Below are positions 12,762 to 38,474 of a DNA stretch of 38,556 nucleotides, piece by piece. The stretch is taken from positions 9,347-47,902 of the forward strand of contig NZ_JYFN01000050.1 in assembly GCF_000948395.1 (NCBI RefSeq), in the 5' to 3' direction. Source of the DNA: Frankia torreyi. Lineage in GTDB: Bacteria; Actinomycetota; Actinomycetes; Frankiales; Frankiaceae. The notes under the pieces were generated by a model, which did not search any database, had not been told where the DNA came from, and saw only the letters and a program-made list of their open reading frames with translations. Made by a program: the position numbers and the translations under genes. Each line of letters opens with the position of its first letter. The stretch's first letter is position 1.

Positions 12762-14432
12762 GTGCGGAGGGACATGTCCCAGCACAGTGCCGAGACGTTG
12801 ACCGCTCACGAGTTCGTCGCGCATCTGTACGCGCCCACGTCAAGCCCGCGGGCTGTCGAACTTTACACGTACCTGCGCGGTCTCTGGTCACGCTGCCAGG
12901 TCGAACTCGGCATGACCAGCCCCATTCCGGCCTTGGGGGTCCCACCGGATCCGCCGGCGCACAGCGAGCCGGATGAGACCGCGGTCTTCACCCCCATCGC
13001 CGCCGCACGCCGCGAGGGCGACGGGGTGCATCAGGTTCTGCTACGGCGGGTGCATGACGTGCTGTGCCTGTCGGTGTCCCTGGCGCCGCGCCACGGCAGC
13101 GATCTGACCTGGGCACGGCTGCGCAGCGACTGGGCGAGCATCAGCGAGCCGCTCCCCGACGGGCTGCTGGGCACGGCCGAACTCTACCTCGCACTGTTCC
13201 CGGCGTCAGGACTGGAACGGACCGAAGCAGGAGCCGATCTCAGTGCGGCCTGCCGCGCGCTGCTGCCAGCCCCGGCAGCCGCCGATTTCGATGGACGGGG
13301 TGTGTCGACGGCGGGCGGCTTCATCGCCTGGGACGCGGACACCGGTCCGGACGACCGCCTCACCCGGCGCATCGTGGCCCTGGCCCCGGCCGACCACGCC
13401 GCCGAGCTCAGTTCCTGGGCCTGGAGCCGGGGCGGGCCCGCCGAGGGCATGGTGATCACACCGCTCGCGCGGTACCTGATGCAGGCGGCGAAGCTCCGCT
13501 ACCACCTGCGCGTCTGGGCGGCGGGGGCGCCGGTGCGGGCGGCCCGCCGAGACACCGAGTCCGCGCTCGCCACGGTCACCGCCCTGCTCGATGAAAGCTC
13601 ACTGTTGGCCGCCAGACCCGTTCCCTTCAACTCCGCGGCACACTCTGGAGCTCTGCTCGACTCGAACCAGACCGCGCTTGACCGCGCCGTGGCGTTGCTG
13701 CGGGCCGAGATCGTGCACCTGGCCGGCACCGCCACGGCACTGCGCCAGATGCGACGGTCCGTGGAGGCCAGTGCCGCGAACATGGCCGCCTTGGCCGACC
13801 AGATCCCGGCGAGCGCCCGCGATCGGGCCGATGCGGACCACCATCACCTTTATGCCGACGACGACGCCCTGGCCACCTGGTTCGCTCGCCAACTTGACGA
13901 TGATCTCTTCTCGGTCGAAACCACCGTTGACCGGGCCCGCGCGGCGATCGGCGACATCGTCCCGACATCAGTGCCGCCCACGCCGCCAGCCCCACCGGAA
14001 CATCCGAAGTGGACATATTCGCCGACGGTTCCACCTATTCCCGCCAGCGAGGCATGGCCGGTATCCACGGACATCGACCTCACCGCCCCAGACCGCGCGG
14101 CCTTACTGGATACCGTGGCCAGCCTCTTCCCAACCGAAAATCACGCGGGCCACCTGCTCCACCAGGTGGGTTTACCCAGAGAAAGACGAGTCGGCTTGGA
14201 ATCCGTGGCGCCAATAGTCGGGTGGAGTCAAATTTTCGCCGAGTTCGACAACGGAGTCATTTTCAACCCATACCGGCGCCTGCTCGCCGCCGCACTCGCC
14301 CTCTACCCTTACAACCCGACCTTACGGAACCTCGCTCGCGCCAACGGCCTGAAAATCGCACTTGAAGAGTCCCAGAAAGCCTCGACCACTCCTGACTACG
14401 ACCCCGTTCGGAACGTAAGGCGCCTAACCTGA
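12762..14432 (+). CDS. CATRA conflict system CASPASE/TPR-repeat-associated large protein
   Basis: A 556-residue protein (552 if it starts at the ATG at 12774). It begins with TAHEFVAHLYAPTSSPRAVE, the opening I associate with the CATRA-N proteins that accompany CHAT proteases in actinomycetes. The middle (about residues 240-380) is helical and may include a coiled coil (RRSVEASAANMAALADQIPA), and a Pro-rich linker near residue 410 separates a C-terminal domain (about 430-556) with LFPTENHAGHLLHQVGLPRE. No enzyme motif is visible. It probably controls or senses for the CHAT protease encoded divergently. Confidence 0.7.
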   Translation: MRRDMSQHSAETLTAHEFVAHLYAPTSSPRAVELYTYLRGLWSRCQVELGMTSPIPALGVPPDPPAHSEPDETAVFTPIAAARREGDGVHQVLLRRVHDVLCLSVSLAPRHGSDLTWARLRSDWASISEPLPDGLLGTAELYLALFPASGLERTEAGADLSAACRALLPAPAAADFDGRGVSTAGGFIAWDADTGPDDRLTRRIVALAPADHAAELSSWAWSRGGPAEGMVITPLARYLMQAAKLRYHLRVWAAGAPVRAARRDTESALATVTALLDESSLLAARPVPFNSAAHSGALLDSNQTALDRAVALLRAEIVHLAGTATALRQMRRSVEASAANMAALADQIPASARDRADADHHHLYADDDALATWFARQLDDDLFSVETTVDRARAAIGDIVPTSVPPTPPAPPEHPKWTYSPTVPPIPASEAWPVSTDIDLTAPDRAALLDTVASLFPTENHAGHLLHQVGLPRERRVGLESVAPIVGWSQIFAEFDNGVIFNPYRRLLAAALALYPYNPTLRNLARANGLKIALEESQKASTTPDYDPVRNVRRLT

Positions 14433-18757: not shown

Positions 18758-19645
18758 GTGCCGCTCTTCATCCCGCTCGCGCTGCTCGCCGCGTTCCTGT
18801 TGGCGTCGTCGGCCGCTCTCCAGCAGCGCGCCGCGGGCCGCAGCCGGTTCGCGGCCCGCGACGACCACGACCTGGCCGTGCCCGGGTTCGGACACCTGCT
18901 CGACCTCGTCCGCGAGCCGTTATGGCTGGTGGGCTGGCTGACGAACCTGGCCGGCTTCCTCACCCAGGCCCTGGCGCTGCATCTCGGATCGCTCGCCGAG
19001 GTGCAGCCGCTCATGGTCACCCAGCTACTGTTCGCGCTCCCCCTCGGCCTGGTGGGCACCCGCCTGCGGATGGCCCGCACGGCCTGGTGGGCCATCGCGG
19101 CGATCTGCGCCGGGCTCGCGCTGCTGCTCGGCGTGCAGGATCGGCTACCCACCCGCCCGCCGCTCGACCAGGAACGCCTCGTGTTGGCGATCATCGCCAT
19201 CGCCGCGCTGGCCGCGGCGTTGGTCATCGCATCGCGCGGGCGGCGGCCGGCGGCACGGGCGGCGCTGTTCGGCGTCGCCGCCGGATTGTTCTTCGCGCTC
19301 AGCGCGCTGCTGCTCAAGCAGGCGACCGACGAAACCCTCGACAACGGGTTCGACACGACAGTGACGCACTGGTTCGCTTATGCCCTCTGCGGGGTGACAC
19401 TGACGAGCCTGTGTCTAGGTCAAATGGCCTACGCGGTCGGTCCGCTGACCGCGGCGGTCACCGCCATGAACATCACCAACCCGACCGCCGCCTACGCGCT
19501 CGGCGTCCTGGTGTTCGGGGTCCCCGCTCCGAGGGGGTCCGGGGTCATCGCGGGCGTCGCGGTCTCCGCCGTGCTGGTCGTGGGCGGGGTGTTCCTGCTG
19601 TCGCGGCCCAGTGCGCTGCCCCGGCCCCGACACCGCGCGCCCTGA
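18758..19645 (+). CDS. DMT-superfamily membrane transporter
   Basis: A 295-residue integral membrane protein with about nine or ten hydrophobic helices, starting LFIPLALLAAFLLASSAALQ and showing the two-fold pattern of drug/metabolite (EamA/NIPA-like) transporters: helices around residues 55-80 (LVGWLTNLAGFLTQALALHL), 105-125, 140-160, 170-190, 215-240 and 260-285. The VQPLMVTQLLFALPLGLV stretch is typical of the actinobacterial branch. The GTG start leads straight into the first helix. Substrate not predictable. Confidence 0.82.
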   Translation: MPLFIPLALLAAFLLASSAALQQRAAGRSRFAARDDHDLAVPGFGHLLDLVREPLWLVGWLTNLAGFLTQALALHLGSLAEVQPLMVTQLLFALPLGLVGTRLRMARTAWWAIAAICAGLALLLGVQDRLPTRPPLDQERLVLAIIAIAALAAALVIASRGRRPAARAALFGVAAGLFFALSALLLKQATDETLDNGFDTTVTHWFAYALCGVTLTSLCLGQMAYAVGPLTAAVTAMNITNPTAAYALGVLVFGVPAPRGSGVIAGVAVSAVLVVGGVFLLSRPSALPRPRHRAP

Positions 19646-19762
19646 CGGACCCGGTGGACGGGTTCTTCCTGTCGCATATTGCGTCATCTCGGCGCCAGGC
19701 GGACACTCAGGGTATTGAGACCGATCGCGGCGACCGGCGCCGTTCGGGGCGGAGGCTTCCGC

Positions 19763-20476
19763 ATGCCCCTGGCAAGGAGCGAGGTGCAGCCGGAATCGCG
19801 CGGCGACGCGGCCGCCTACGACGCAGTCCTCACCGACCTGGTGGACGTTCTCGACGGGGAGCCCGGTTTCGGTCGCGAGTCGGCCCGGCGGCTGCTGCAG
19901 GACCGCATCGCCCACCACCTCGGGCCGGGCCACCGGCTGCATCTCGTCGAGCACGATGTGCGCTACCAGTGGTTCGCCGCCCTCGTGTACCGGCTCGGCG
20001 AGGAGTCCGGCGGGCTCGCCGCGCTGGGCCGGGCCGTCAACGATCTGCAACCGGATTCGCGGGTGGCCGCGGTGGTCGCCCGCCTTGTCGCGGCCGCCGA
20101 TGAGGGCGTCGGCGAGAGGTGGGCCGAGGACCACGGGGCCGCGATGCCGCGGGTGACGGCATCCCCACCGGCGGACCCGCCGTCAGGACGCGCGGCGGCG
20201 GAGGTCGACGGGCCACCACAGCCGCTGCGCCCGGTCGAGATCCGGGAACTCGCCTCGGCGTTCGGCCAGGGTGGGGGCGCACGGCGGTTCCTGGTCGACG
20301 CCGGGGTGCCGGCGGAGCGGATCCCACCGTCGGACATCGACGCCGCGACGTTCTGGGCGGAAGTGTCGGCGCTTCTCGGCCACGGGCTGCTTCGCGATGG
20401 CCGGCGGCGAGTGCTCGCGGCGGCTGCCTTCCGCTTCCCCGCGAACGACGTCTTCGCTGCGGGCCGGCCCCGATAG
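19763..20476 (+). CDS. EAD2-EAD1 adaptor protein of a ternary conflict system
   Basis: A 237-residue protein starting at an ATG with GGAGG seven bases upstream. Residues about 15-110 resemble effector-associated domain 2 (RRLLQDRIAHHLG, then FAALVYRLGEESGGLAALGR and AVNDLQPDS). The C-terminal about 80 residues resemble effector-associated domain 1 (VEIRELASAFGQ, RRFLVDAGVPAERIP, TFWAEVSALLGHGLL, FRFPAND). EADs are death-domain-like adaptors predicted to join sensors and effectors by like-with-like contact. The next gene carries its own EAD2, so a homotypic interaction is likely. No catalytic effector domain is present, which is unusual for an EAD protein. Confidence 0.72.
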   Translation: MPLARSEVQPESRGDAAAYDAVLTDLVDVLDGEPGFGRESARRLLQDRIAHHLGPGHRLHLVEHDVRYQWFAALVYRLGEESGGLAALGRAVNDLQPDSRVAAVVARLVAAADEGVGERWAEDHGAAMPRVTASPPADPPSGRAAAEVDGPPQPLRPVEIRELASAFGQGGGARRFLVDAGVPAERIPPSDIDAATFWAEVSALLGHGLLRDGRRRVLAAAAFRFPANDVFAAGRPR

Positions 20477-20572
20477 CCAGCGGCCGGTCATGACGACTCC
20501 GCCCGCTCCGTCGGCTGGACCTACGGCATCCAGTCGGGGTCCGACGACCTCCTCCGCGCCGGCCATCGGGCA

Positions 20573-20608
20573 GGTTACGCTAAACACCAGATTCGGTGTG
20601 CTGAGTAA
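20573..20608 (+). promoter_or_regulatory. Imperfect palindrome upstream of the VMAP operon
   Basis: GTTAC-gctaa-ACACC, six-base centre, GGTGT-gctga-GTAAC: 15-base arms with the outer and inner five bases perfectly paired. The stretch is AT-richer than its surroundings and looks non-coding, which favours the VMAP start at 20655 over an earlier ATG at 20490. It is a candidate operator; the binding protein is unknown. Confidence 0.5.
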
Positions 20609-20654
20609 CAGAGCCCGCCGGCCGTCAAGCGCGTTGGGATCCGTCGGGGGAATC

Positions 20655-22250
20655 GTGACCAACCGCGATCCGTCGTCGCCACGACACGACGCATGGCGGT
20701 CCGACCCCGTCCTGGAGTCCGACCCCGTCCTGGAGTCCGACCTTGTCCTGGAGATTGTCGGCTGCCTGGAGAGCACCGCCGATCTACTCAGCCCCGCCAC
20801 CCGAGATCTGCTGGTCAGGCGCTTCGAACGGCGCGCCGGCAGGCGGCTGTTCGTCCCCCAGTTCGATGTCGCCCGGGACTGGTGCTTCCGTTTCGTCGAA
20901 AGCTGCGTCGAGCTGGACAACGGAGCCGAGATCCTCGTGGACGCCGTGTCCGACCTGCGGCCCGACTCCGCCGTCGCGCACCGGCTGGCGCACATTCTCG
21001 CCGAACAGGGGGCGGCGGAGGTCGCCGAGGGGGCCGGCGAGCTGTGGGATCTCCTGCGGCGGGAGCTCAGCGCGTTGCCGGCGCAGCGGGTCGCCCATGC
21101 CTTCCGCCATGCCTGCCACCCGGCCCAGCCACCACGCCACTGCACCACGGCGTGGCAGCTGTTCCTCTGGGTTGCGAACCGTCATCCAGAACCCGCCCGA
21201 CTCCCGCAGCATGCGGTGTTCCTCATCCGGTGCGCCGACGTGCTCGCCCCGGGCACGTTCGTCCGGGTCGAGGCGTGGCTACGCGGCGAGGCGCACCGGC
21301 GCGACCTGACCCACCAGCTGCAGCTGGCCCAGCTCGCCGCGGCCCCGGTGCCGCGGCGGCGCACGGGGATCGTCTCGCTGCAGTTCCAGCCAGTCGGGCC
21401 CAGGTCCGAGGATCATCTCGCGTCGTGGTGGCTGCACTGGGCCGACGCAGCGACGCCGCACCAGGGTGGGGCGCGGCCGGCCCGGCCGGAGCTGTTCGAA
21501 CAGATCGCGGCCGCGGTCGTCGAAGACGCGGAGGAGATCCTCGGCGCGGAGATACCCACGGGTGAGTCCGCCGAGCTGGTCGTGGAGATCTTCCTGCCGT
21601 TCGCCTACATGGACCTGCCCGTCACCAGCTGGCGCCGGCAGATCCACGGAACGCCGCGCCTGCTGGTCGAGGACCACCCAGTCGTCGTGCGCAGCTTCGA
21701 ACGCCTGCACCGACGTGGCTCGCGCTTCCTGTGGCTGCAGCGCTGGGCCGCGCTCACCGCCCCCGACCCGAGTGGGATGGTGGTGGCGGACGCCGCGCGC
21801 GTCGGGCGACATGGGCTGGCCAAGGACGAGCGGATCGCCGCGGTGACACTCAGCGGGCCACCGACGCAGGGCTCGCCGGCGCAGCGGCAGCTCGCCGAGG
21901 CGCTGAGCGCGGGCCTCGCGGTCGCGGCGTGGCAGGTCGACGACCCCGACCGGCCCCACACCGACAGGCCGCTGCTCGAGCTGCTCGCCCATGGCGATCC
22001 GTTCCGCCTGCCCCAGCGGTTCCGGCGGGAAAACCTCACCCGACTGGAACCACGCGGTGACCGCCACGCGCCCGGCCCGACCGCCTGCGATGCGCAGGCG
22101 GCGGCGCGACGCACCGCGATTCTGCTGTGGGACGACCCGCGCCGCGCCGCCTGGCGAGCGATCGCCGGATCGGCACGGCTACCGCGGCGCCCGACGCAAC
22201 TCGGGCAGGCGACGCCCTCGGCCGGGACACAACCGGAGGGGCCCGCGTGA
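20655..22250 (+). CDS. EAD2-VMAP-C protein (vWA-MoxR associated)
   Basis: A 531-residue protein from the GTG at 20655, which has GGGGG four bases upstream; an ATG at 20490 in the same frame would add 55 low-complexity residues. After a short repeat, residues about 28-115 form an EAD2-like domain (VGCLESTADLLSPATRDLLV to AVSDLRPDSAVAHRLAHIL). A middle helical region is followed from about residue 240 by VMAP-C: SLQFQPVGPRSEDHLASWWL, ELVVEIFLPFAYMDLPVTSW, and GSRFLWLQRWAAL. VMAP proteins are predicted partners of MoxR ATPases and vWA proteins in NTP-dependent conflict systems. Its stop overlaps the MoxR start (GTGA), so translation is coupled. Confidence 0.82.
   Translation: MTNRDPSSPRHDAWRSDPVLESDPVLESDLVLEIVGCLESTADLLSPATRDLLVRRFERRAGRRLFVPQFDVARDWCFRFVESCVELDNGAEILVDAVSDLRPDSAVAHRLAHILAEQGAAEVAEGAGELWDLLRRELSALPAQRVAHAFRHACHPAQPPRHCTTAWQLFLWVANRHPEPARLPQHAVFLIRCADVLAPGTFVRVEAWLRGEAHRRDLTHQLQLAQLAAAPVPRRRTGIVSLQFQPVGPRSEDHLASWWLHWADAATPHQGGARPARPELFEQIAAAVVEDAEEILGAEIPTGESAELVVEIFLPFAYMDLPVTSWRRQIHGTPRLLVEDHPVVVRSFERLHRRGSRFLWLQRWAALTAPDPSGMVVADAARVGRHGLAKDERIAAVTLSGPPTQGSPAQRQLAEALSAGLAVAAWQVDDPDRPHTDRPLLELLAHGDPFRLPQRFRRENLTRLEPRGDRHAPGPTACDAQAAARRTAILLWDDPRRAAWRAIAGSARLPRRPTQLGQATPSAGTQPEGPA
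20700..20753 (+). repeat. 18-bp coding repeat, three copies
   Basis: Three contiguous units of tccgaccccgtcctggag (third with two substitutions) encode SDPVLE, SDPVLE and SDLVLE near the N-terminus of the VMAP-C protein. Confidence 0.9.
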
Positions 22251-23398
22251 GCTTCGACGACGGGAGAATCATGCTGGAGCCGGACGCCGAGGGACCGGGC
22301 GCCCGACGCTGGTGGCTGTTCCACGGCACCGGCGAGCCCCCCGACGCCGACCTCCAGTGGCCGCCGGCCCCTCCTTGGCGGCGGTTCGCCGGCCCCGTGG
22401 TCGACGGTCCACCGCCACCAGAGGACGACGAGGAGATCTCGCGTCTGCGCGGGGAGGTGTCGGCCATGCTGCTCACGCCCGCCCAGGTCTCGGCCGTCAA
22501 CGTCGCGCTGCTGCTGCGACGACCGATCCTCGTCACCGCTGCGCCAGGCTCCGGGCAGGCGGGGCTGGCCCACCTGATCGCCCGGGAACTGCGCCTGGGG
22601 CGGGTCCTGCGCTGGTCGGTGAACCGTCATACGACGCTGCGCGACGGCGTCCACGACTTCGATGCGCTTGGCCTGGCGAGCGCCGCGATCCAGCTGCGGG
22701 CCGATCAGCCCGTGGTGGAGCCGGGCGCGCCCCCCGGCACGCGCAGGTCCGTCAAGGGCCATCTCGCCGACCTGCTCGGCCACGACGCCGAGCGCAGGCC
22801 GCCGGACTCGCTCCCGGTTCACCGGTACGTCAGGCTCGGCCCGTTGGGCACCGCGCTGCTTGGCCGCACTCGCCCCCGGGTGCTGCTCATCGACCGACTC
22901 GACCGCAGCGGCTACGACCTGCCCGACGACGTTCTCGACGTGCTCGACGAGGGCCGTGCCGTCGTGCCAGAGCTGGCCAGGCTGCCACCCACCACCGGGC
23001 CGCTCCCCGTGGCTGTGGACGATCCAGGCGCCCACGCGCTCCTCGATGCTGGGATCATCCAGTGCGCGGAACCGCCGGTCGTCGTGATCACGAGCAGCGG
23101 CGAACGGGATTTCTCGCCGACCTTCCACGGCCGCTGCGTCCACCTCCGGATGCCCGCGCCATCCCGCACGAGGCTGCAGACAGTGGCGGAATCCCGGTAT
23201 GGGGCCGTTCCCGGCGTGGCCGCCCTGATCGCACGCTTCGACAAACGCCGCAGCGCGGGTGCCGAGCTGACGATCGACCAGCTCCTCGACGCCCTCCACC
23301 TGGCAGCGGCCGGCGTCCTGGACGACGACAGCACGGGACTCGCCCTCGACGCCGTCTGGGGCGGCGCGGCTGACGATCCCTCGGCGGGCCTGCCGTGA
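22247..23398 (+). CDS. MoxR-type AAA+ protein with degenerate nucleotide-binding motifs
   Basis: A 383-residue protein; the GTG start has GGAGG seven bases upstream and overlaps the VMAP stop. It matches the MoxR-like ATPase of VMAP ternary systems along its length (LTPAQVSAVNVALLLRRPIL, VLRWSVNRHTTLRDGVHDFD, PDDVLDVLDEGRAVVPELAR). The Walker A site, expected as GxxGxGK[ST], reads APGSGQAG: Lys is Gln104 and the Ser/Thr is Ala105. Walker B reads LLIDRLD, with the catalytic Glu replaced by Arg217. The sensor position expected as SNGE reads SSGE, and one of two arginines of the RRC motif is Gly. It is therefore probably a pseudo-ATPase acting as scaffold or nucleotide-independent switch. The frame is intact. 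Confidence 0.85.
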   Translation: MSFDDGRIMLEPDAEGPGARRWWLFHGTGEPPDADLQWPPAPPWRRFAGPVVDGPPPPEDDEEISRLRGEVSAMLLTPAQVSAVNVALLLRRPILVTAAPGSGQAGLAHLIARELRLGRVLRWSVNRHTTLRDGVHDFDALGLASAAIQLRADQPVVEPGAPPGTRRSVKGHLADLLGHDAERRPPDSLPVHRYVRLGPLGTALLGRTRPRVLLIDRLDRSGYDLPDDVLDVLDEGRAVVPELARLPPTTGPLPVAVDDPGAHALLDAGIIQCAEPPVVVITSSGERDFSPTFHGRCVHLRMPAPSRTRLQTVAESRYGAVPGVAALIARFDKRRSAGAELTIDQLLDALHLAAAGVLDDDSTGLALDAVWGGAADDPSAGLP

Positions 23399-26300
23399 CC
23401 CGACGTCACGCCGACAACGGTCACGCCGACAACGGTCACGCCGACGACGACGGCACCGACGGACTTACCGCCGGCGATCAGCCCGACAAGCCGAGCCGCG
23501 TCCGTTACCTGCCCGGGCCCGTCCACATCGACCTGGCGCCGGCGATTCGCGACGAGCGAGCCCTCGCCCGGGCACTGCACCCGCTCGTCGATCAGGTCCC
23601 GGCTCCGCAGTCCCGCCCGCTCGATACGCAGCGGACCGCACGCGACCTGCTGCAGAGCCGCATGGGGCAGGTCACGGTCAAGGGATCGGCCCCGCCGCGG
23701 TGGGAACTCGCCCTCGTCGTCGACGCGAATCCGACGTTCTTCGCGGCCTGGGGGGATGCCCTCCCCGGCATCATCCAGATCCTGGAGCGCCAGCTCGCGT
23801 TCCGTGACGTTATCGTCGCTTACCTCGTTCCCGACGACCGTCACGACGGTGCCCTGCGTCTGCGCGGCGGACCTGCCAGCTCGACCACACGGCCACCGTC
23901 CCAGCTGACGGAGCGCACCGGGCGGCGCGTCATCTGGCTGCTCACCGACGGCCTGGGCGAGGCGTGGCGTTCCGGCCGCATGGCGCAGGTGCTCGCCGAG
24001 TGGGCCGACGCTGGACCGGTCGCGGTGATCGACGTCCTCGCCTCGCGCACCTGGGACCACACTGACCTGGACGCCGAGCGGGTTCGGCTGCACGGCAGCG
24101 GGTTCGGGACGGGACGGGTGCGCTCCTGGACCTACCAGGGCGGCCTGCTCGACCAGGCCGGCGACGATCCCGACCACGGCGTCGAGGGCGTCGAGGGCGA
24201 CAGGGCTGCTGCGGCGGGCAGCGTCGCCGGATCCGCGCGGACGGCGCGCGCCGTCCCGGTCCTGGAGCTGGACGCGGAGTGGATCGGCTACTGGGCCCGC
24301 TTTGTCGCTGCGGCGGAACCGACGTGGTTCGAGACAGTCGCCGTCGTCGCCGGGTCCGACCGCCGCTTTCCACCTGAATACGGGATCGAGTCGTCGCCGC
24401 CGGACGAGCGACTCGAGGATTTCTTCGCGCTTGCCACGCCGACATCAAGAAAGCTTGCGGGACTCCTGGCGATCCAGCCCCTAAGCCGCCGAAGCCTGCG
24501 CACGGTCGCCGGCATCGCAGGCGCCAGCCGCCGGGATTTGTCCGAGATTTTTGCCTTCGGTTTACTTGTGATCGATTCGTTGTCGACAACATTCGATATC
24601 ATTCCGGAAATCCGCTCGAAGCTTCGCGCGCAGGTGAGCAGGAGCGACGTCGAGCGGATTCGCCGGGCGGTCGGATCCGACGCGGACAACGCGGGGACGG
24701 AGCCACTCGGCATGCCCATGGCCACGCCCTCCGACCAGCCGCCCGTCCGTCCACCCGGCGAGGCGGACACGCCCGCGCCGGTGTGGGACGCAGCCGCGCC
24801 CCTCGACCGAACCCCCAGCGCACGGCCGCCGCGCAGCACGGGAGCTCCGGCCGGAGAGCCAAGGCCACCACGGACACCTGACACTGAGAGCGAAGATTCC
24901 CTTACGATGAGTAGTATCGCTGGAACGAGTCGGCCGAGGTCCAGCGCGGGTGACGGCTCGATGGGAGCTGCCGGCGCCGAGGCGAACACCACACGAGGAG
25001 GACCCACCGTGACTGTGGGCACCGCCCTACGACCGGCGCTGGCCGCGGGTCAGCTCCCTCGTGTCTGGGGAAATGTGCCGCCGCGGAATCCGCACTTCAC
25101 CGGGCGCGTCGACCTGCTCACCATGCTGGACGCCCGACTCCTCGAAGGCACGACCTCGGTCCTGCCCGAGACGCTGCACGGAATGGGCGGCGTCGGAAAG
25201 TCCCAGCTCGCGACCGAATACATTTATCGCCATCTTTCGGACTTCGACATCATCTGGTGGATTCCCGCGGAACGGACGGTCCAGATCAGCAGCGCTCTCA
25301 TCGAGTTGGGCGCCCGGCTCGGGCTGGACGTCGGCACCGAGGCCAACGTCGCCGTCCGCCAGGTCGTGGAAGCGCTGCGGATCGGTCATCCCTACGAGCG
25401 CTGGCTGCTGGTTTTCGACAATGCCGACGACCCGCAGGCGGTGCGGGAGTACTTTCCGGCGAGTCCGACCGGTCGGGTTCTCGTCACCTCCCGCAATCCG
25501 GGCTGGGCGAACGTCAGCCATCCCCTCGAAGTGGCTGTCTTCCGGCGCGAGGAGAGCGTCGCGCTGCTGCGCAGCCGAGGTGGTCCACTGGACGACGACG
25601 GCGCGGACCAGGTTGCATCTGCTCTCGGGGACCTGCCGCTCGCGGTCGAGCAGGCGGCGACCTGGCGGGCGGAGACCGGGATGTCCGCTCAGGAATACCT
25701 GCGGCTGTTGGAGGACAAACTGACCGAGCTGCTGAGCACCGCGCCGGCGGACTACCCGCGCCCGGTCACGGCGGCCTGGAACGTGTCGCTGGATCGGCTC
25801 GCGGAGAGCAATCCCGCCGCCCTCGAACTCCTCCAGGTATGCGCGTTCTTCGCGCCGGAACCGATCTCCCGCCAGCTCCTCTCCCGAGCCCACAACGAGA
25901 CGATCTCGCCAGCGCTCGACGAGGCCCTGCGCGACCCGGTCAAACTCGGCCAGGCAATCCGCGACATCAACCGGTATGCCCTGGCCAGAATCAACCACCG
26001 GGACAACTCCATCGTCATGCACCGGCTGGTCCAGGCCGTCCTGATCGGCCGGATGACCCCGGACCAGCAGCGGACGATGCGCCACGGAGCCCACGTCCTG
26101 CTCGCCGCGAGCGACCCCAACGATCCGTTCAACCCGGGCCTGTGGCCCACCTACGCCGACCTGTACCCGCACATGATCGCCTCGCTCGCCGAACGTTCCG
26201 CGGACCCCCGCGTCCGCCAGCTCCTGCTCAACGAGGTCGACTACCTGTGGACCTGGGGAGACCACCAGGTGAGCAACGACCTCGCTCGCGGCGTGCACGC

Positions 26301-27537
26301 CGAGTGGCAGGCGAGCTTCGGCGAGGACGACCCCTACACCCTGCAGATGGCGCTGCGCTCCGGCTGGGGCCTCGTCGTGATCGGCCGCTACGCCGAGGCC
26401 GCCGAGGTCAACCGACGAACCTTCGAGCTGTCGACCCAGGTCAACGGGCCCGACGGCGAGCTGACCATCGTGCTCATGGGCAATGTCGCGGCCGACCTGC
26501 GCTGGCGCGGCGACTTCGCCGCCGCCTACGACGTCGCCGAGGACGCCTACCGGCGGGCCCGCCAGGCCTTCGGCGCCGACGACCCGCAGACCCTGGACGC
26601 CGCCCACAACGTCGCCGTGAGCCTCCGGCTGCTGGGACGCTTCGCCGAGTCGGCCGAACTGGCCGAGGACACCTGGCAACGCTCGATCCAGCTCTACGGC
26701 GAGAACCACGACCGCAGTCTGAACACCTTCACCGGGCTGACCCTCGACCGCCGGGAACTCGGCGACTACCTCGGCGCTCGGGCCACCCAGGAGAACATCG
26801 ACGCGCGCTACCGGCACCTGTTCAAGGATTCGGAGAACCATCCGGCCCGGCTGCACGCCGGGCGGAACCTGGCGGTGGCGCACCGCAAGGCCGGCGACCA
26901 CGACAAGGCGCTCGCGCTGTCCCGCGACGTCGAGGAACGGTTCTTCCACCGCTACGGTGGCGAACACCCCGCGTCGCTGGCCGCCGCCCTGAGCCTGTCC
27001 ATCGACCTGCGCCATGCCGGCCAGCTCCACGAGGCCCGCAAGATCTGCGTCCGGACCCAGCAGCGGTACGCGACGAAGATCGGTGAGATGCACCCGCACA
27101 CCCTCGCGACCTGGATCAATCTCGCGATCATCGACCGGCTGTCCGGCCAGTCGGATGTCGCGCTCGACCGGGACGAGCGGACGTTGGCGGCCTTCGTCGA
27201 GCGGCTCGGCGACCGGCATCCCTCGACCCTCGCCTGCGCCGCGAACCTCGCCAGCGACCTGTATGCGGTCGGACGGTTCGAGGAGGCGCACGCGCGTGAC
27301 CAGGTGACGCTCGCGACCTCGACCGAGGTGCTCGGCGAGGCGCACCCGACGACGTTGGCGGTGGCCGCGAACCTCGCGATGGACCTGCGCGCCCTGGAGC
27401 GCAAGGAGGAGGCCCTGGAGCTGCAGGCCGCGACGCTGACCCGGTTGGACCGGGTGCTGGGCCACGACCATCCGGCGACCCGCCAGGTCGTCGCCGGGAT
27501 CCGTCTGGACTGCGACGTCGACCCCATGCCGATGTAG
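23395..27537 (+). CDS. fxsT: SAV_2336-like / NB-ARC / TPR protein, FxsT-like
   Basis: A 1380-residue protein overlapping the MoxR stop by four bases. Residues about 35-410 are a SAV_2336-type domain with a vWA-like core (WELALVVDANPTFFAAW, Asp185 in LLTDG); the MIDAS DxSxS reads DANPT. After a Pro-rich linker comes an NB-ARC STAND NTPase (about 560-830): P-loop GMGGVGKSQ with Lys602, LLVFDNADDP, VLVTSRNPGW, GDLPLAVEQAATW. From about 880 to the end are TPR repeats (GRYAEAAEVNRRTFELSTQV; HPSTLACAANLASDLYAVGR). The arrangement corresponds to the tetratricopeptide protein of FxSxx-COOH RiPP systems, and the nearby HExxH and precursor-like genes agree. A perfect internal ribosome-binding site precedes an in-frame GTG at 25009, so a shorter product is possible. 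Confidence 0.8.
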   Translation: MTRRHADNGHADNGHADDDGTDGLTAGDQPDKPSRVRYLPGPVHIDLAPAIRDERALARALHPLVDQVPAPQSRPLDTQRTARDLLQSRMGQVTVKGSAPPRWELALVVDANPTFFAAWGDALPGIIQILERQLAFRDVIVAYLVPDDRHDGALRLRGGPASSTTRPPSQLTERTGRRVIWLLTDGLGEAWRSGRMAQVLAEWADAGPVAVIDVLASRTWDHTDLDAERVRLHGSGFGTGRVRSWTYQGGLLDQAGDDPDHGVEGVEGDRAAAAGSVAGSARTARAVPVLELDAEWIGYWARFVAAAEPTWFETVAVVAGSDRRFPPEYGIESSPPDERLEDFFALATPTSRKLAGLLAIQPLSRRSLRTVAGIAGASRRDLSEIFAFGLLVIDSLSTTFDIIPEIRSKLRAQVSRSDVERIRRAVGSDADNAGTEPLGMPMATPSDQPPVRPPGEADTPAPVWDAAAPLDRTPSARPPRSTGAPAGEPRPPRTPDTESEDSLTMSSIAGTSRPRSSAGDGSMGAAGAEANTTRGGPTVTVGTALRPALAAGQLPRVWGNVPPRNPHFTGRVDLLTMLDARLLEGTTSVLPETLHGMGGVGKSQLATEYIYRHLSDFDIIWWIPAERTVQISSALIELGARLGLDVGTEANVAVRQVVEALRIGHPYERWLLVFDNADDPQAVREYFPASPTGRVLVTSRNPGWANVSHPLEVAVFRREESVALLRSRGGPLDDDGADQVASALGDLPLAVEQAATWRAETGMSAQEYLRLLEDKLTELLSTAPADYPRPVTAAWNVSLDRLAESNPAALELLQVCAFFAPEPISRQLLSRAHNETISPALDEALRDPVKLGQAIRDINRYALARINHRDNSIVMHRLVQAVLIGRMTPDQQRTMRHGAHVLLAASDPNDPFNPGLWPTYADLYPHMIASLAERSADPRVRQLLLNEVDYLWTWGDHQVSNDLARGVHAEWQASFGEDDPYTLQMALRSGWGLVVIGRYAEAAEVNRRTFELSTQVNGPDGELTIVLMGNVAADLRWRGDFAAAYDVAEDAYRRARQAFGADDPQTLDAAHNVAVSLRLLGRFAESAELAEDTWQRSIQLYGENHDRSLNTFTGLTLDRRELGDYLGARATQENIDARYRHLFKDSENHPARLHAGRNLAVAHRKAGDHDKALALSRDVEERFFHRYGGEHPASLAAALSLSIDLRHAGQLHEARKICVRTQQRYATKIGEMHPHTLATWINLAIIDRLSGQSDVALDRDERTLAAFVERLGDRHPSTLACAANLASDLYAVGRFEEAHARDQVTLATSTEVLGEAHPTTLAVAANLAMDLRALERKEEALELQAATLTRLDRVLGHDHPATRQVVAGIRLDCDVDPMPM
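23407..23448 (+). repeat. 15-bp coding repeat, 2.8 copies
   Basis: Units of cacgccgacaacggt at 23407-23421 and 23422-23436 and a partial third encode His-Ala-Asp-Asn-Gly at the extreme N-terminus of the FxsT-like protein. Confidence 0.85.
24995..25011 (+). promoter_or_regulatory. Internal Shine-Dalgarno and in-frame GTG within the FxsT-like gene
   Basis: GAGGAGG at 24995-25001, seven bases, then GTG at 25009-25011, in frame with the NB-ARC-TPR half (codon 539). The preceding about 120 bases have unusual AT-richer codons (gaagattcccttacgatgag) like an intergenic region. The site could start a separate 842-residue NB-ARC-TPR protein, or be a relic of two genes fused by stop loss. Confidence 0.55.
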
Positions 27538-27581: not shown

Positions 27582-29513
27582 CTACTCCCGGATGAGGCGA
27601 GCGGCCGCCGCGGCGTCGTCCCGCGCGAGCCGCTGGCCCGAGACGTCCGGCTGGCCCGAAGCGTCCGGCTCGTCCGGCTGGACGGACGCGGGAAGCAGCC
27701 AGGCGGCGAGTGCGGACGGGTCCGGCGCCTCGCCACCCCGGTCGACCGCCGCGGCCGCCACGGCGCGGACCAGCTCGGGTCGCCGCAGCAGGGTCCACCC
27801 CGCCGGCTCGCCGTCGCCGATCGCGAGTCCGAGCCCGACGAGGGCGCGGCGGTCGTCGCCGTCCCGTTGCACGTCCGCCGCGTAGCCCTGCCGGGCACGG
27901 GCCCGGTCGCCCGCCACGAGGGCGCAGTCCGCCGCGCTCGCACCGCGGTACTCCCGGCCCGGCCCGGCCCGCTCGGTCCGGCGGAACGCGTCCCGATCCG
28001 CCAGCCACAGCCGGGCCAGGGACGCCCTTGTATCCAGGGCGCGTGCCCCCGGATCGGGCACGAGGCGGGCGGGGACCGCGGCCGGCGGGGCGGCGGCGCC
28101 GGCCGCCCAGGCCGCGGCGAGACGCTCGACGGCGGCCGAGTCCGGTTCAAGGTGGTGGATGCGCCACAGTGCGCGGCTGTCCGCCGTCGCCAGCTCGGCC
28201 AGGCGCCGCGTCTCGACGGGGACCGGTTCCGGCAGCCAGCCCTGCACGGTCGTGCGGATCCCGGTGACGAACCGCCGGCCCAGCGCGGTCAGCGGACCGG
28301 TGCGCAGCATCTCGGTCGCCGTGTCGAGAACCTCACCGCGCCACAGCGCGAACTCGAAGTGGGCCAGCATCGCGTCCGCCCCGACCGCCAGCCGGCGCTG
28401 CCGGCGCCAGAACTCCGTGACGCCGAAGAACGCGTAGATGCCGTGGAGCACCCCGTGCGGTGGGCGCGGGTCGTCACGCCACGGCGCGTACCGCAGGACG
28501 GGCGGGGCCTGCGGGTCGATGAGGTCGCACAGGTGCAGGACCGCGCTGAGCACGGTGTGCCGGAACTCGTGCGCCAGGGTCGCGGCGCCGTCGACCGGGT
28601 CCGGCGGTTCGGTGAGCTCGACGCTGCCGACCGCGTCGCCCGACGTGGCGCTGAACGAGCGGAAACGCTGCGCCACGGGCAGCGGGACGACGGCCGAGAC
28701 GGCCGCGTCGACTCCCGCCGCGAGCTGGGGGTGCCCGTCCCGCAGCACCTGCCACGCGCCGGCCAGGCGCCCCTCCCAGCGGGCGACGTCGGCGTCGGCG
28801 AGCCGCACCGGCGGGACGACCCGGTCCACCAGGCGGTAGGGGTCGGCGTCCTCGATGACGACGCCGACGGCTCGGGCCGCCCGGGTGGGATGCCAGACCG
28901 TGACGTCGCGCGTCGGCGCGCCGCCGCCGTCACCGCGGTCCACTCGGACCCGGCCGGCGGATCCGATCACCTCGGCGTCGCCGCCGGTGCCCCGCACCAC
29001 CGCGGTCTCCCAGATCTCCCAGAACGGCAGGCGGGCGTGGCCAAGCGAGGGCAGGTGCACGACGCCACGGTGGGCCGGCACCGCGAGCTCGACCGGTTCG
29101 CCGGCTCGGACTGCGGCGGCGGCGGCCATGGCATGCAGGTAACCGACCTCCACCCACAGGGGCACGTCGTGGTGGAGTCGCCCACGTAACCGGCGGAGCA
29201 GCCGAGTGGCCCATGCCCCCGCGAAGGGCCGGTCGATCACCGCGCGGACCGCCGCCGGATCGCGCTGTTCCACCTCGACGAGGAGGTCCCACGCCTGGTC
29301 CACGGGCGCCAGTGGGTCCGTCGCTGCCGGCTGCTCCCGTAGGGCGTCGAGAATCGCGCGCAGCGCGAGCCGACGGAAGCTGATCTCGGTCTCGAGGAGC
29401 CTCTCGACGACCTCGGCGTCGATCACGCCGAGGGCGAGGGCGTCGACATCACGCGCCGCCAGCCGGTGGATGCCGATGCCCGGCACGGTCGCGGCCGCCG
29501 GAGTGGACGGCAT
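27582..29513 (-). CDS. HExxH-motif putative peptide-modification enzyme
   Basis: A 643-residue protein containing the HExxH motif at His315-Glu316-His319 (TLAHEFRHTVLSAVLHLCDL) and the downstream HGVLHGIYAFFGVTEFWRRQ block, both characteristic of the HExxH domain found with FxSxx-type RiPP systems, either alone or fused to a radical SAM enzyme (FxsB). The motif suggests metal binding; members are thought to modify precursor peptides rather than act as plain proteases. No radical SAM domain is present here. The ATG shares one base with the stop of the small precursor-like gene (TGATG). It is convergent with the FxsT-like gene, 44 bp apart. The Asp/Gly/Ser-rich end (about 615-630) is repetitive. 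Confidence 0.78.
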   Translation of the reverse strand: MPSTPAAATVPGIGIHRLAARDVDALALGVIDAEVVERLLETEISFRRLALRAILDALREQPAATDPLAPVDQAWDLLVEVEQRDPAAVRAVIDRPFAGAWATRLLRRLRGRLHHDVPLWVEVGYLHAMAAAAAVRAGEPVELAVPAHRGVVHLPSLGHARLPFWEIWETAVVRGTGGDAEVIGSAGRVRVDRGDGGGAPTRDVTVWHPTRAARAVGVVIEDADPYRLVDRVVPPVRLADADVARWEGRLAGAWQVLRDGHPQLAAGVDAAVSAVVPLPVAQRFRSFSATSGDAVGSVELTEPPDPVDGAATLAHEFRHTVLSAVLHLCDLIDPQAPPVLRYAPWRDDPRPPHGVLHGIYAFFGVTEFWRRQRRLAVGADAMLAHFEFALWRGEVLDTATEMLRTGPLTALGRRFVTGIRTTVQGWLPEPVPVETRRLAELATADSRALWRIHHLEPDSAAVERLAAAWAAGAAAPPAAVPARLVPDPGARALDTRASLARLWLADRDAFRRTERAGPGREYRGASAADCALVAGDRARARQGYAADVQRDGDDRRALVGLGLAIGDGEPAGWTLLRRPELVRAVAAAAVDRGGEAPDPSALAAWLLPASVQPDEPDASGQPDVSGQRLARDDAAAAARLIRE

Positions 29514-29695
29514 CAGACGCGCCGACGCGGATTAGCGCCGCCGCTACCGTTTTCAATCCGCCCCGCGGGCACGTCGATGGTGTGGAGCAGCCTTTGTACG
29601 CCCGCGCGGAGCCTGCCGTCCGGGCTGTCGCGGAGCCGGTCGAGCCCGATCCCGCGCACGTCGGCGAGCTCTCCTTCGATTGCAGCGTCAGCCAT
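29513..29695 (-). CDS. FxsA-like small precursor peptide (candidate RiPP)
   Basis: A 60-residue peptide. Its leader-like part (ELADVRGIGLDRLRDSPDGR, then LRAGVQRLLHTIDVPAGRI) follows the pattern of FxSxx-COOH precursors: DLxGVSLxxL, then LxxALxRVLxxxxxP. The FxSxx core normally ends the protein; the aligned position here reads NGSGG and is followed by seven more residues (ANPRRRV). The stop overlaps the start of the HExxH gene, so the two are coupled. GGAGG lies 11 bases before the ATG. Leader resemblance plus the HExxH neighbour support a precursor; the core is atypical or degenerate. Confidence 0.55.
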   Translation of the reverse strand: MADAAIEGELADVRGIGLDRLRDSPDGRLRAGVQRLLHTIDVPAGRIENGSGGANPRRRV

Positions 29696-36752: not shown

Positions 36753-36996
36753 GTCCCGCTGGCCGAACGAGGCCGTGCCCGCGGTAGTGGGGCCGGCCTC
36801 GCCGTCACCTCCGTCGATTGTCGCCTCGGCCGAAAGGGCCGTGACGGCACCGGCCTCTTCAGATGCCCTGCTGTCCGGAAGCCAGGACGGGCCACGGTAA
36901 ATGACCGCGATGCCCCCGAAGCACGCCATCGCCCGCAGTCGAGAGCGGGCGTGGGTGCTGTCGATCCGACCCCAGCCGGTCTGGGAAGGTGACAGC

Positions 36997-37017
36997 ATGG
37001 CATCGGGGGAAAAATGA
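36997..37017 (+). other. Six-codon upstream ORF overlapping the TIR-NB-ARC start
   Basis: ATG at 36997 opens MASGEK and its stop TGA overlaps the ATG of the TIR-NB-ARC gene (ATGA at 37014-37017). GGGAAGGTGA lies just before it. It could be a coupling leader peptide, or chance. Nothing else was recognised in 36753-36996. Confidence 0.3.
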
Positions 37018-38474
37018 CATTGTTTGCGGACGGGTCGCGTCAGCGAGTGTTCATCAGTGTCGCGGGCCCGGACCGGCCGTGGGCGCGGTGGATTGCGCAA
37101 CACCTGCGCCGTGCCGGGTACGAGGTCGAGTACGACGAGTGGACGTGGCAGGCGGGCACCAGTTTTCTCGCGCGCATGGACATGGCCCTGGCCAGAGCCG
37201 ACCGCATCATCGCCGTGATAACTCCCGCGTACCTCGATCGGACCTCCTTCGGCCGGGAGGAACGCGAGGCCGCGCTGCAACTCGCGCACGAACGAGACGG
37301 CCTGCTGGTGCCGGTGATCGTCGCACCCACCGCATTGCCGCCACTCCTTGCCCGGTTGTCGAACATAGATCTGACCGGATTGAGCGAGGAAGAGGCCGCC
37401 GCCCGCCTACTCGATCGGCTCGCGGTCCGGGCGCCGCATCTGGACGAGCGGGTTCCCTGGCCCGGAGCGACGTCCACCGGATCCGCGCAGCGGCGGGCAG
37501 ACCGTGCCCGGCAGATCCCGTTTCCCGGTTCGATACCGCCGATCTGGAATGTCCCGCCGAGACTCCCCACCTTCACCGACCGGGTCGAGGTCCTGCACCG
37601 GATCGAGGTGCTGTCTCGGCAGCCGGTCGGCCGATCGGGCCCCGGCGGCAGCCCGGCCATCACCGTGCTGCGCGGCCTCGGCGGCGTCGGCAAGACCCAG
37701 GTGGCAGTCGAGTACGCCTGGCGCCACGCATCCGAGTACACCCTGGTCTGGTGGGTCAACGCCACCCAGTCGGCGCTGATCACGGAGAAGATCGCCGCCC
37801 TCTCGAGCCGACTCGACCTTCCGGAGAGCGGTATTCTCGCAAAGGATGCCCAGGCCGTCCTCGCGATGCTGGCGCGCCGCCCCCGCTGGTTGCTGGTTTA
37901 CGACAACGTCGAAAATCCCCGCGACCTGCGCCCATGGCTGCCCGGGGGAGCCGGTGACATCCTGATCACCTCCCGCAGCCCGAGCTGGGGGGACATGGCG
38001 ACGAGAATCGACGTCGATGTTCTGCCGCGAACCGACTCCATCACCCTGCTGCGAAGCAGGAACGCGGGCAGCGACGTGAGTTCGGCCGCGGATCTGGCCC
38101 GTGAACTCGGTGACCTGCCACTGGCCCTCGAACAGGCCTCGGCCTACATCGAGCGGACGGAGATGGGGCTGTCCACCTATCTGAACAAGTTCCGGTCCCG
38201 CCGGGAGCGGATGCTGCGTAAAGGCGAGGACCTGGCCTACGGCGGGAATCTGCACACCGCCTGGTCGCTGTCCCTGGAACGCCTGGAGGCGACCGAACCT
38301 GCCGCCGTGCAGTTGTTGCAGATCGTCTCGGTCCTCGCCCCGGATCTGATCCCGTTGACGTTGTTCGAGGAGGCCTCGGCCATCCTGCCGGAACCGCTGC
38401 GTTCCCGAGTCAGCGGTGAGGATCCCGGGGAGGATCTGGACGACATCATCGCCGCGATCGCGGGCGTGTCATGA
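37014..38474 (+). CDS. TIR-NB-ARC STAND protein, C-terminally truncated
   Basis: A 486-residue product. Residues about 8-125 are a TIR domain (RVFISVAGPDRPWARWIAQH, RIIAVITPAYLDRTSFG, then acidic REER at 81-84 where the NADase glutamate is expected). NB-ARC follows: GLGGVGKTQ with Lys227, WLLVYDNVENP with Asp297, ILITSRSPSW, GDLPLALEQASAY, and the start of the winged-helix part. It stops at DDIIAAIAGVS, the point at which relatives, including the FxsT-like protein here, continue into 'LAR...hrLvQ' and TPRs. The stop lies at an IS-like end, so the sensor part is lost and the gene is probably broken. Confidence 0.82.
   Translation: MTLFADGSRQRVFISVAGPDRPWARWIAQHLRRAGYEVEYDEWTWQAGTSFLARMDMALARADRIIAVITPAYLDRTSFGREEREAALQLAHERDGLLVPVIVAPTALPPLLARLSNIDLTGLSEEEAAARLLDRLAVRAPHLDERVPWPGATSTGSAQRRADRARQIPFPGSIPPIWNVPPRLPTFTDRVEVLHRIEVLSRQPVGRSGPGGSPAITVLRGLGGVGKTQVAVEYAWRHASEYTLVWWVNATQSALITEKIAALSSRLDLPESGILAKDAQAVLAMLARRPRWLLVYDNVENPRDLRPWLPGGAGDILITSRSPSWGDMATRIDVDVLPRTDSITLLRSRNAGSDVSSAADLARELGDLPLALEQASAYIERTEMGLSTYLNKFRSRRERMLRKGEDLAYGGNLHTAWSLSLERLEATEPAAVQLLQIVSVLAPDLIPLTLFEEASAILPEPLRSRVSGEDPGEDLDDIIAAIAGVS

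What the first reader, a model, noticed from the sequence alone, without database searches (positions are those of the whole stretch)
22247..23398. Pseudo-MoxR: Walker A Lys and Walker B Glu both lost in an intact gene
Gln104-Ala105 replace Lys-Ser/Thr, Arg217 replaces the catalytic Glu, the sensor Asn is Ser and one arginine of the RRC motif is Gly, yet the frame, ribosome-binding site and overlap with both neighbours are kept. Ternary MoxR systems are thought to depend on NTP hydrolysis, so this operon may have a nucleotide-independent version, with energy input moved to the NB-ARC of the fused next gene.
Basis: partly seen in the sequence, partly recalled or inferred. Interest (0 to 1): 0.8.

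Follow-up and report, generated by a model that had tools for sequence, protein, structure and literature searches.

The report
Dead MoxR, then MoxR-less conflict system
In a group of Frankia-type soil bacteria, a putative immunity system keeps an intact gene for a molecular motor that has lost the residues for burning ATP, and two relatives have deleted the gene altogether, so these systems apparently no longer need the motor that was thought to switch them.

Summary
Observation confirmed. The 383-aa MoxR-type AAA+ protein (22247-23398) has Gln104-Ala105 for Walker A Lys-Ser, Arg217 for the Walker B Glu, Ser284 for sensor-1 Asn and Gly295 for one Arg, in an intact, tightly overlapped gene. 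It is not a one-off. Five Frankiaceae genomes share a single-origin clade (100/100, motif columns removed) without Walker A Lys/Ser and Walker B Glu; every other intact VMAP-type MoxR sampled across the class keeps the Lys. The dead clade is under purifying selection (omega 0.15). Catalytic positions drift while scaffold positions hold. No other VMAP-type MoxR exists in the window's genome. Two further Frankia systems, nested in this clade on VMAP and vWA-NB-ARC-TPR trees, have no MoxR gene: VMAP overlaps the vWA gene directly. So the series reads active, dead, deleted MoxR, with VMAP, vWA, NB-ARC-TPR and HExxH genes kept. Best reading: a catalytically dead scaffold in a system that stopped depending on MoxR ATP hydrolysis. 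New variant of the VMAP system of Kaur et al. 2020; no biochemistry available.

The parts
12762..14432 (+). CATRA-N/CATRA-C protein with C-terminal EAD1; possible effector sharing EAD1 with the adaptor below (linkage to the cassette is inferred)
   Evidence: Pfam PF20269, PF20270, PF19955 above cut-off
19679..20476 (+). adaptor protein EAD2 + EAD1, first gene of the conserved cassette
   Evidence: Pfam PF19956 and PF19955; same position in relatives
20271..22250 (+). VMAP protein: EAD2, VMAP-M0, VMAP-C (start codon uncertain; the true start is probably downstream of 20271)
   Evidence: PF20028, PF19956 and PF19916 above cut-off
22247..23398 (+). catalytically dead MoxR-type AAA+ protein, 383 aa
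   Evidence: Profile and alignment to active VMAP-type MoxRs; predicted fold closest to CbbQ/NorQ, Z about 16
22547..22561 (+). degenerate Walker A, GSGQA (residues 101-105)
   Evidence: K and S/T lost in all five clade members
22895..22897 (+). Arg217 in place of the Walker B Glu
   Evidence: R/R/R/G/G in the five clade members
23395..27537 (+). vWA (SAV_2336 N-terminal type) fused to NB-ARC and TPR (FxsT type), 1380 aa; NB-ARC Walker A GMGGVGKS and Walker B LLVFDNADD intact
   Evidence: NF041121, NF040586, PF00931, TPR; motifs
27582..29513 (-). aKG-HExxH type peptide-modifying/processing enzyme, HEFRH intact
   Evidence: TIGR04267, 172.6 bits; motif
29513..29695 (-). candidate FxsA-like precursor peptide, 60 aa, overlapping the HExxH gene
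   Evidence: Direct reading; similar small ORF at the same place in relatives; no family hit

Best explanation
The gene encodes a pseudo-ATPase of the MoxR clade that keeps the AAA+ scaffold but can neither bind nor hydrolyse ATP in the usual way. Hydrolysis was lost once, in the ancestor of this branch of Frankiaceae VMAP systems. The protein was then kept, most likely as a static adaptor or ring that positions the vWA-NB-ARC-TPR protein against VMAP, while the threshold for firing came to rest on the remaining parts (VMAP sensing, and the NB-ARC switch that was already present). In two Frankia species the adaptor itself became dispensable and the gene was deleted. Shown: the residue losses, single origin, purifying selection, absence of another VMAP-type MoxR in the assembly, and nested MoxR-less systems. 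Inferred: no ATP binding, scaffold role, the NB-ARC as sole NTPase switch, and immune function of the system.
For: The five dead MoxRs are one clade, 100/100, on a tree built without the motif columns; the closest active relative is G030:C150. Of 91 columns conserved in active MoxRs, those lost in all five are K104, S105, L135, R143, E217, K220 and N348. K220R and N348D are identical in all five, whereas position 104 reads Q/Q/G/R/R and 217 reads R/R/R/G/G, so the catalytic sites drift while the scaffold is constrained. A codon model gives omega 0.15, lnL -4303.7 against -4505.6 for omega=1. The predicted fold matches CbbQ2 and NorQ, MoxR proteins that work with vWA partners, at Z about 16. 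The own genome has one VMAP-type MoxR only, the dead one, plus a distant generic MoxR. G006, a one-contig genome, likewise has only the dead one. L220 (G005:C144) and L221 (G001:C311) have VMAP overlapping the vWA gene with no MoxR, and both trees place them in the dead clade. Their NB-ARC and HExxH motifs are intact.
Against: Omega in the dead clade (0.15) is higher than in active Frankiaceae (0.08) and one other active group (0.12), so constraint is somewhat relaxed. Absence of stop codons is weak evidence in such GC-rich DNA: a neutral simulation keeps the frame open in 31% of trials. Deletion in two relatives shows that the dead protein is not essential everywhere. No biochemical data. The draft assembly of the window's genome (153 contigs) could hide another MoxR.
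Confidence: 0.62

Rival explanations
1. Decay in progress: once hydrolysis was no longer needed the gene lost its role and is being slowly eroded, with deletion as the end point; the present protein has no function.
For: Catalytic positions drift; omega is about twice that of active Frankiaceae relatives; two nested systems have deleted the gene.
Against: Omega 0.15 is far below 1; open frames, translational overlaps and most conserved columns are kept in five species down to about 46-48% identity; two clade-specific residues are fixed (K220R, N348D).
Confidence: 0.18
2. Energy hand-over: the fused NB-ARC specifically took over the energy input from MoxR, and this is why MoxR could die. This is partly compatible with the best explanation.
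For: NB-ARC motifs are intact in all dead and MoxR-less Frankia systems; Walker B Glu loss is somewhat commoner in NB-ARC-fused systems, 10/39 vs 1/20.
Against: Most NB-ARC-fused systems keep an active MoxR, so fusion is at most permissive; p=0.08 with only about two independent events; a Streptomyces-group system without MoxR has no NB-ARC on its vWA protein (L223).
Confidence: 0.3
3. The dead MoxR acts in mixed rings with the distant generic MoxR encoded elsewhere, as an inhibitory or regulatory subunit.
For: Arg296 is kept in all; a generic MoxR exists in the window's genome and in the relatives checked; one genome with a dead MoxR (G028) also has an active VMAP-type MoxR.
Against: The generic MoxR is only remotely similar (54.6 bits against 481); four of five genomes with a dead MoxR have no active VMAP-type MoxR.
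Confidence: 0.08
4. The protein still binds nucleotide in an unusual way and works as a nucleotide-gated switch without fast hydrolysis.
For: The f17 relatives (L016, L017) keep GKS while Walker B is DG, so binding-only MoxRs may exist in these systems.
Against: Lys and Ser/Thr of Walker A are both gone, the Lys replaced in three different ways across the clade.
Confidence: 0.07

Closest known systems
VMAP-type MoxR-vWA ternary systems (Kaur et al. 2020, PMC7159879)
   Same: VMAP protein, MoxR-type gene and vWA protein in order, EADs, AP-ATPase/NB-ARC plus TPR fused behind the vWA, nearby peptide and metallopeptidase-like gene; Actinobacteria.
   Different: The MoxR is catalytically dead, or absent in two sister systems; the main text describes the MoxR as an active NTPase with an arginine finger and mentions no inactive MoxR.
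iSTAND, iSTAND2 and the inactive N-terminal FtsH domain of related ternary systems (PMC7159879, PMC8195603)
   Same: Pseudo-NTPase components inside the same class of systems, with eroded nucleotide-binding motifs.
   Different: There the third component is inactive and MoxR stays active; here the MoxR itself is inactive.
NorQ-NorD and CbbQ-CbbO (active MoxR-vWA machines)
   Same: Closest solved folds, MoxR partner of a vWA protein.
   Different: They have intact Walker motifs and use ATP hydrolysis (established knowledge).
Catalytically dead AAA+ modules of dynein and ORC
   Same: AAA+ folds kept as structural modules after loss of ATPase function (established knowledge; ORC is cited as a parallel in PMC8195603).
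   Different: There the dead modules sit in mixed rings with active ones; here no active partner of the same type is encoded in four of five genomes.

Membership tests
VMAP-type ternary conflict system | VMAP-C protein encoded directly upstream | tested here: met
   PF20028, 90 bits against a cut-off of 27
VMAP-type ternary conflict system | vWA protein downstream carrying C-terminal effector domains | tested here: met
   SAV_2336 N-terminal domain 221 bits, NB-ARC and TPR; both vWA aspartates kept; the fold model of the vWA part was of low confidence
VMAP-type ternary conflict system | catalytically competent MoxR AAA+ ATPase | tested here: not met
   Walker A Lys/Ser and Walker B Glu lost; gene absent in L220 and L221
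MoxR clade of AAA+ | MoxR fold and sequence kinship | tested here: met
   84 to about 40% identity to VMAP-type MoxRs; CbbQ/NorQ fold Z about 16; Pfam AAA_5 not reached by the window protein but reached by active sisters
MoxR clade of AAA+ | Walker A GxGK[S/T] and Walker B DE | tested here: not met
   GSGQA, DR
MoxR clade of AAA+ | arginine finger before strand 5 | tested here: inconclusive
   Of the RRC pair, Arg295 is Gly and Arg296 is kept; three of five members keep both; which one is the finger was not tested
MoxR clade of AAA+ | hexameric ring and ATPase activity | not testable with these tools
   needs protein

The most novel reading that the evidence does not exclude
A lineage of MoxR-vWA conflict systems has moved in steps from an ATP-driven MoxR gate to a pseudo-MoxR adaptor and then to no MoxR at all, leaving VMAP plus a vWA-NB-ARC-TPR protein as a self-sufficient sensor-switch. 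MoxR-less VMAP-vWA systems also arose elsewhere, in the Streptomyces group (L223) and in f17 (L224), so the MoxR is an optional layer and not the core.
Probability: 0.45. Interest if true: 0.75.

Novelty: new variant of a known kind. Interest (0 to 1): 0.62.

Why it matters
The MoxR-vWA pair is proposed to be the NTP-driven threshold that keeps these systems silent. Natural systems with dead or missing MoxR, in complete and otherwise intact cassettes, give a direct test of whether that threshold needs ATP hydrolysis by MoxR. They also supply a ready comparison series (active, dead, absent) in close relatives, and a smaller, possibly easier system to reconstitute.

Tried and rejected
A parallel loss of the vWA metal site was considered: the dead clade reads D-x-N/S-P-T-F against mostly D-D/E-x-x-S/T-M in active relatives. 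But N and T at the ligand positions also occur in active relatives (L044, L049) and both Asp are kept, so no loss is claimed. A fold model of the vWA part was too poor to use (pLDDT 49). Simple pairwise dN/dS suggested strong relaxation against a few near pairs, but a wider set of active pairs overlapped; the codon model was used instead. ORF 18922-20103 was first taken for the upstream gene and rejected: the real one is the EAD2-EAD1 frame 19679-20476. Plasmids hold only distant relatives, best 42% identity. The genome-contig scan gave only five loci, all Frankiaceae. Literature searches found no inactive MoxR in VMAP systems in the papers held; supplementary files could not be read.

Full report
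Observation. The reading frame 22247-23398 encodes 383 aa with GSGQA in place of GxGK[S/T], DR in place of DE, TSS in place of TSN and GRC in place of RRC. Start and stop overlap the neighbouring genes, with a GGAGG site upstream. No Pfam model reaches the window protein even at E=1, while active sisters pass the AAA_5 cut-off. NCBIfam gives only a weak partial match to MadB_ATPase.

What it is. Alignment and tree place it among VMAP-type MoxRs. The predicted structure (core pLDDT about 75-88, ends poor) matches the MoxR proteins CbbQ2 and NorQ at Z about 16, above other AAA+ families at 12.6 or less. The upstream gene is VMAP (EAD2, VMAP-M0, VMAP-C). The downstream gene is a SAV_2336-type vWA fused to NB-ARC and TPR. 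Around them lie an EAD2-EAD1 adaptor and, on the other strand, an HExxH enzyme and a candidate small peptide. This matches the peptide-associated VMAP systems of Kaur et al. 2020, where an AP-ATPase with TPRs is fused directly to the vWA protein (PMC7159879). The genus is Frankia: G010:C45 (15,443 bases) corresponds in length and match to the Frankia tisae record NZ_JANEZT010000140.1, and G010 is of the window's genus.

A clade, not an accident. Searches of the family, the class and the phylum and a motif table of 95 distinct sequences found Walker A Lys loss in five intact sequences only: the window, G010 (Frankia tisae), G006, G028 (Parafrankia sp. EUN1f) and G009 (Frankia canadensis). All five also lost the Walker B Glu. 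With the motif columns removed they form one clade (100/100) whose sister, G030:C150, is active. Hydrolysis was therefore most simply lost once.

Selection. A codon model gives omega 0.15 for the dead clade, 0.083 for active Frankiaceae and 0.12 for an active f17 group; omega=1 is rejected by about 200 log units. So the protein is constrained, somewhat less than active ones. Among 91 columns conserved in active MoxRs, seven are lost in all five dead ones: K104, S105, L135, R143, E217, K220 and N348. The catalytic Lys and Glu positions vary freely among the dead ones, while K220R and N348D are fixed.

No other VMAP-type MoxR. The window's genome holds one VMAP-type MoxR, this one, and one distant generic MoxR (54.6 bits against 481). 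The same holds for G006 (single contig), G009 and G010. G028 has an active second system.

Loss of the gene. A VMAP-C search of the family turned up systems without any MoxR: L220 (G005:C144) and L221 (G001:C311). There VMAP and the vWA-NB-ARC-TPR gene overlap directly, and no MoxR trace is found in 17 kb. On the vWA-NB-ARC-TPR tree they are sister to F. canadensis inside the dead clade (100/99; clade 100/100). On the VMAP tree they are again inside that clade (100/100), with a different inner order. NB-ARC and HExxH motifs are intact. G001 has no VMAP-type MoxR elsewhere; G005 has an active second system. Outside Frankiaceae two more VMAP-vWA neighbours without MoxR were seen: L223 in a one-contig Streptomyces-group genome (the group name is inferred from kinship codes) and L224 in f17.

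Is the NB-ARC the new engine? The fusion is shared by all Frankiaceae systems examined with active MoxR. Loss of the Walker B Glu occurs in 10 of 39 fused and 1 of 20 unfused systems (p=0.08), in about two independent lineages. So the fusion may be permissive, but a hand-over is not shown.

Conclusion. A pseudo-ATPase MoxR kept by selection in a VMAP system that no longer relies on MoxR ATP hydrolysis, with outright loss in two relatives. Function, binding and complex formation are inferred.

Noticed in passing
L045/L016 (G193), L046/L017 (G138), L188-L193 (f17, g40): Second, independent change of the Walker B Glu in VMAP-type MoxRs: E to G (with sensor Asn lost) in two genomes and E to D in six, all with an intact P-loop; possibly ATP-binding but slow or non-hydrolysing MoxRs.
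   Followed up: partly
L223:7127-10227 and L224:6538-12651: VMAP next to a vWA gene without a MoxR gene in a Streptomyces-group genome and in an f17 genome; MoxR-less systems seem to have arisen more than once.
   Followed up: partly
window 12762-14432 (+): CATRA-N/CATRA-C protein ending in EAD1, which could be recruited by the EAD2-EAD1 adaptor of the VMAP cassette.
   Followed up: no
window 29513-29695 (-): 60-aa candidate FxsA-like precursor with a C-terminus (RIENGSGGANPRRRV) that does not fit the FxSxx, RxD or acidic types; the HExxH enzyme next to it is intact.
   Followed up: partly
window 36993-38471 (+): Second ORF with an NB-ARC match (170 bits) about 9 kb from the cassette.
   Followed up: no
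L222:6715-8595 (G014:C5): VMAP of the dead-clade type that runs to the end of its contig; whether a MoxR follows cannot be seen.
   Followed up: no
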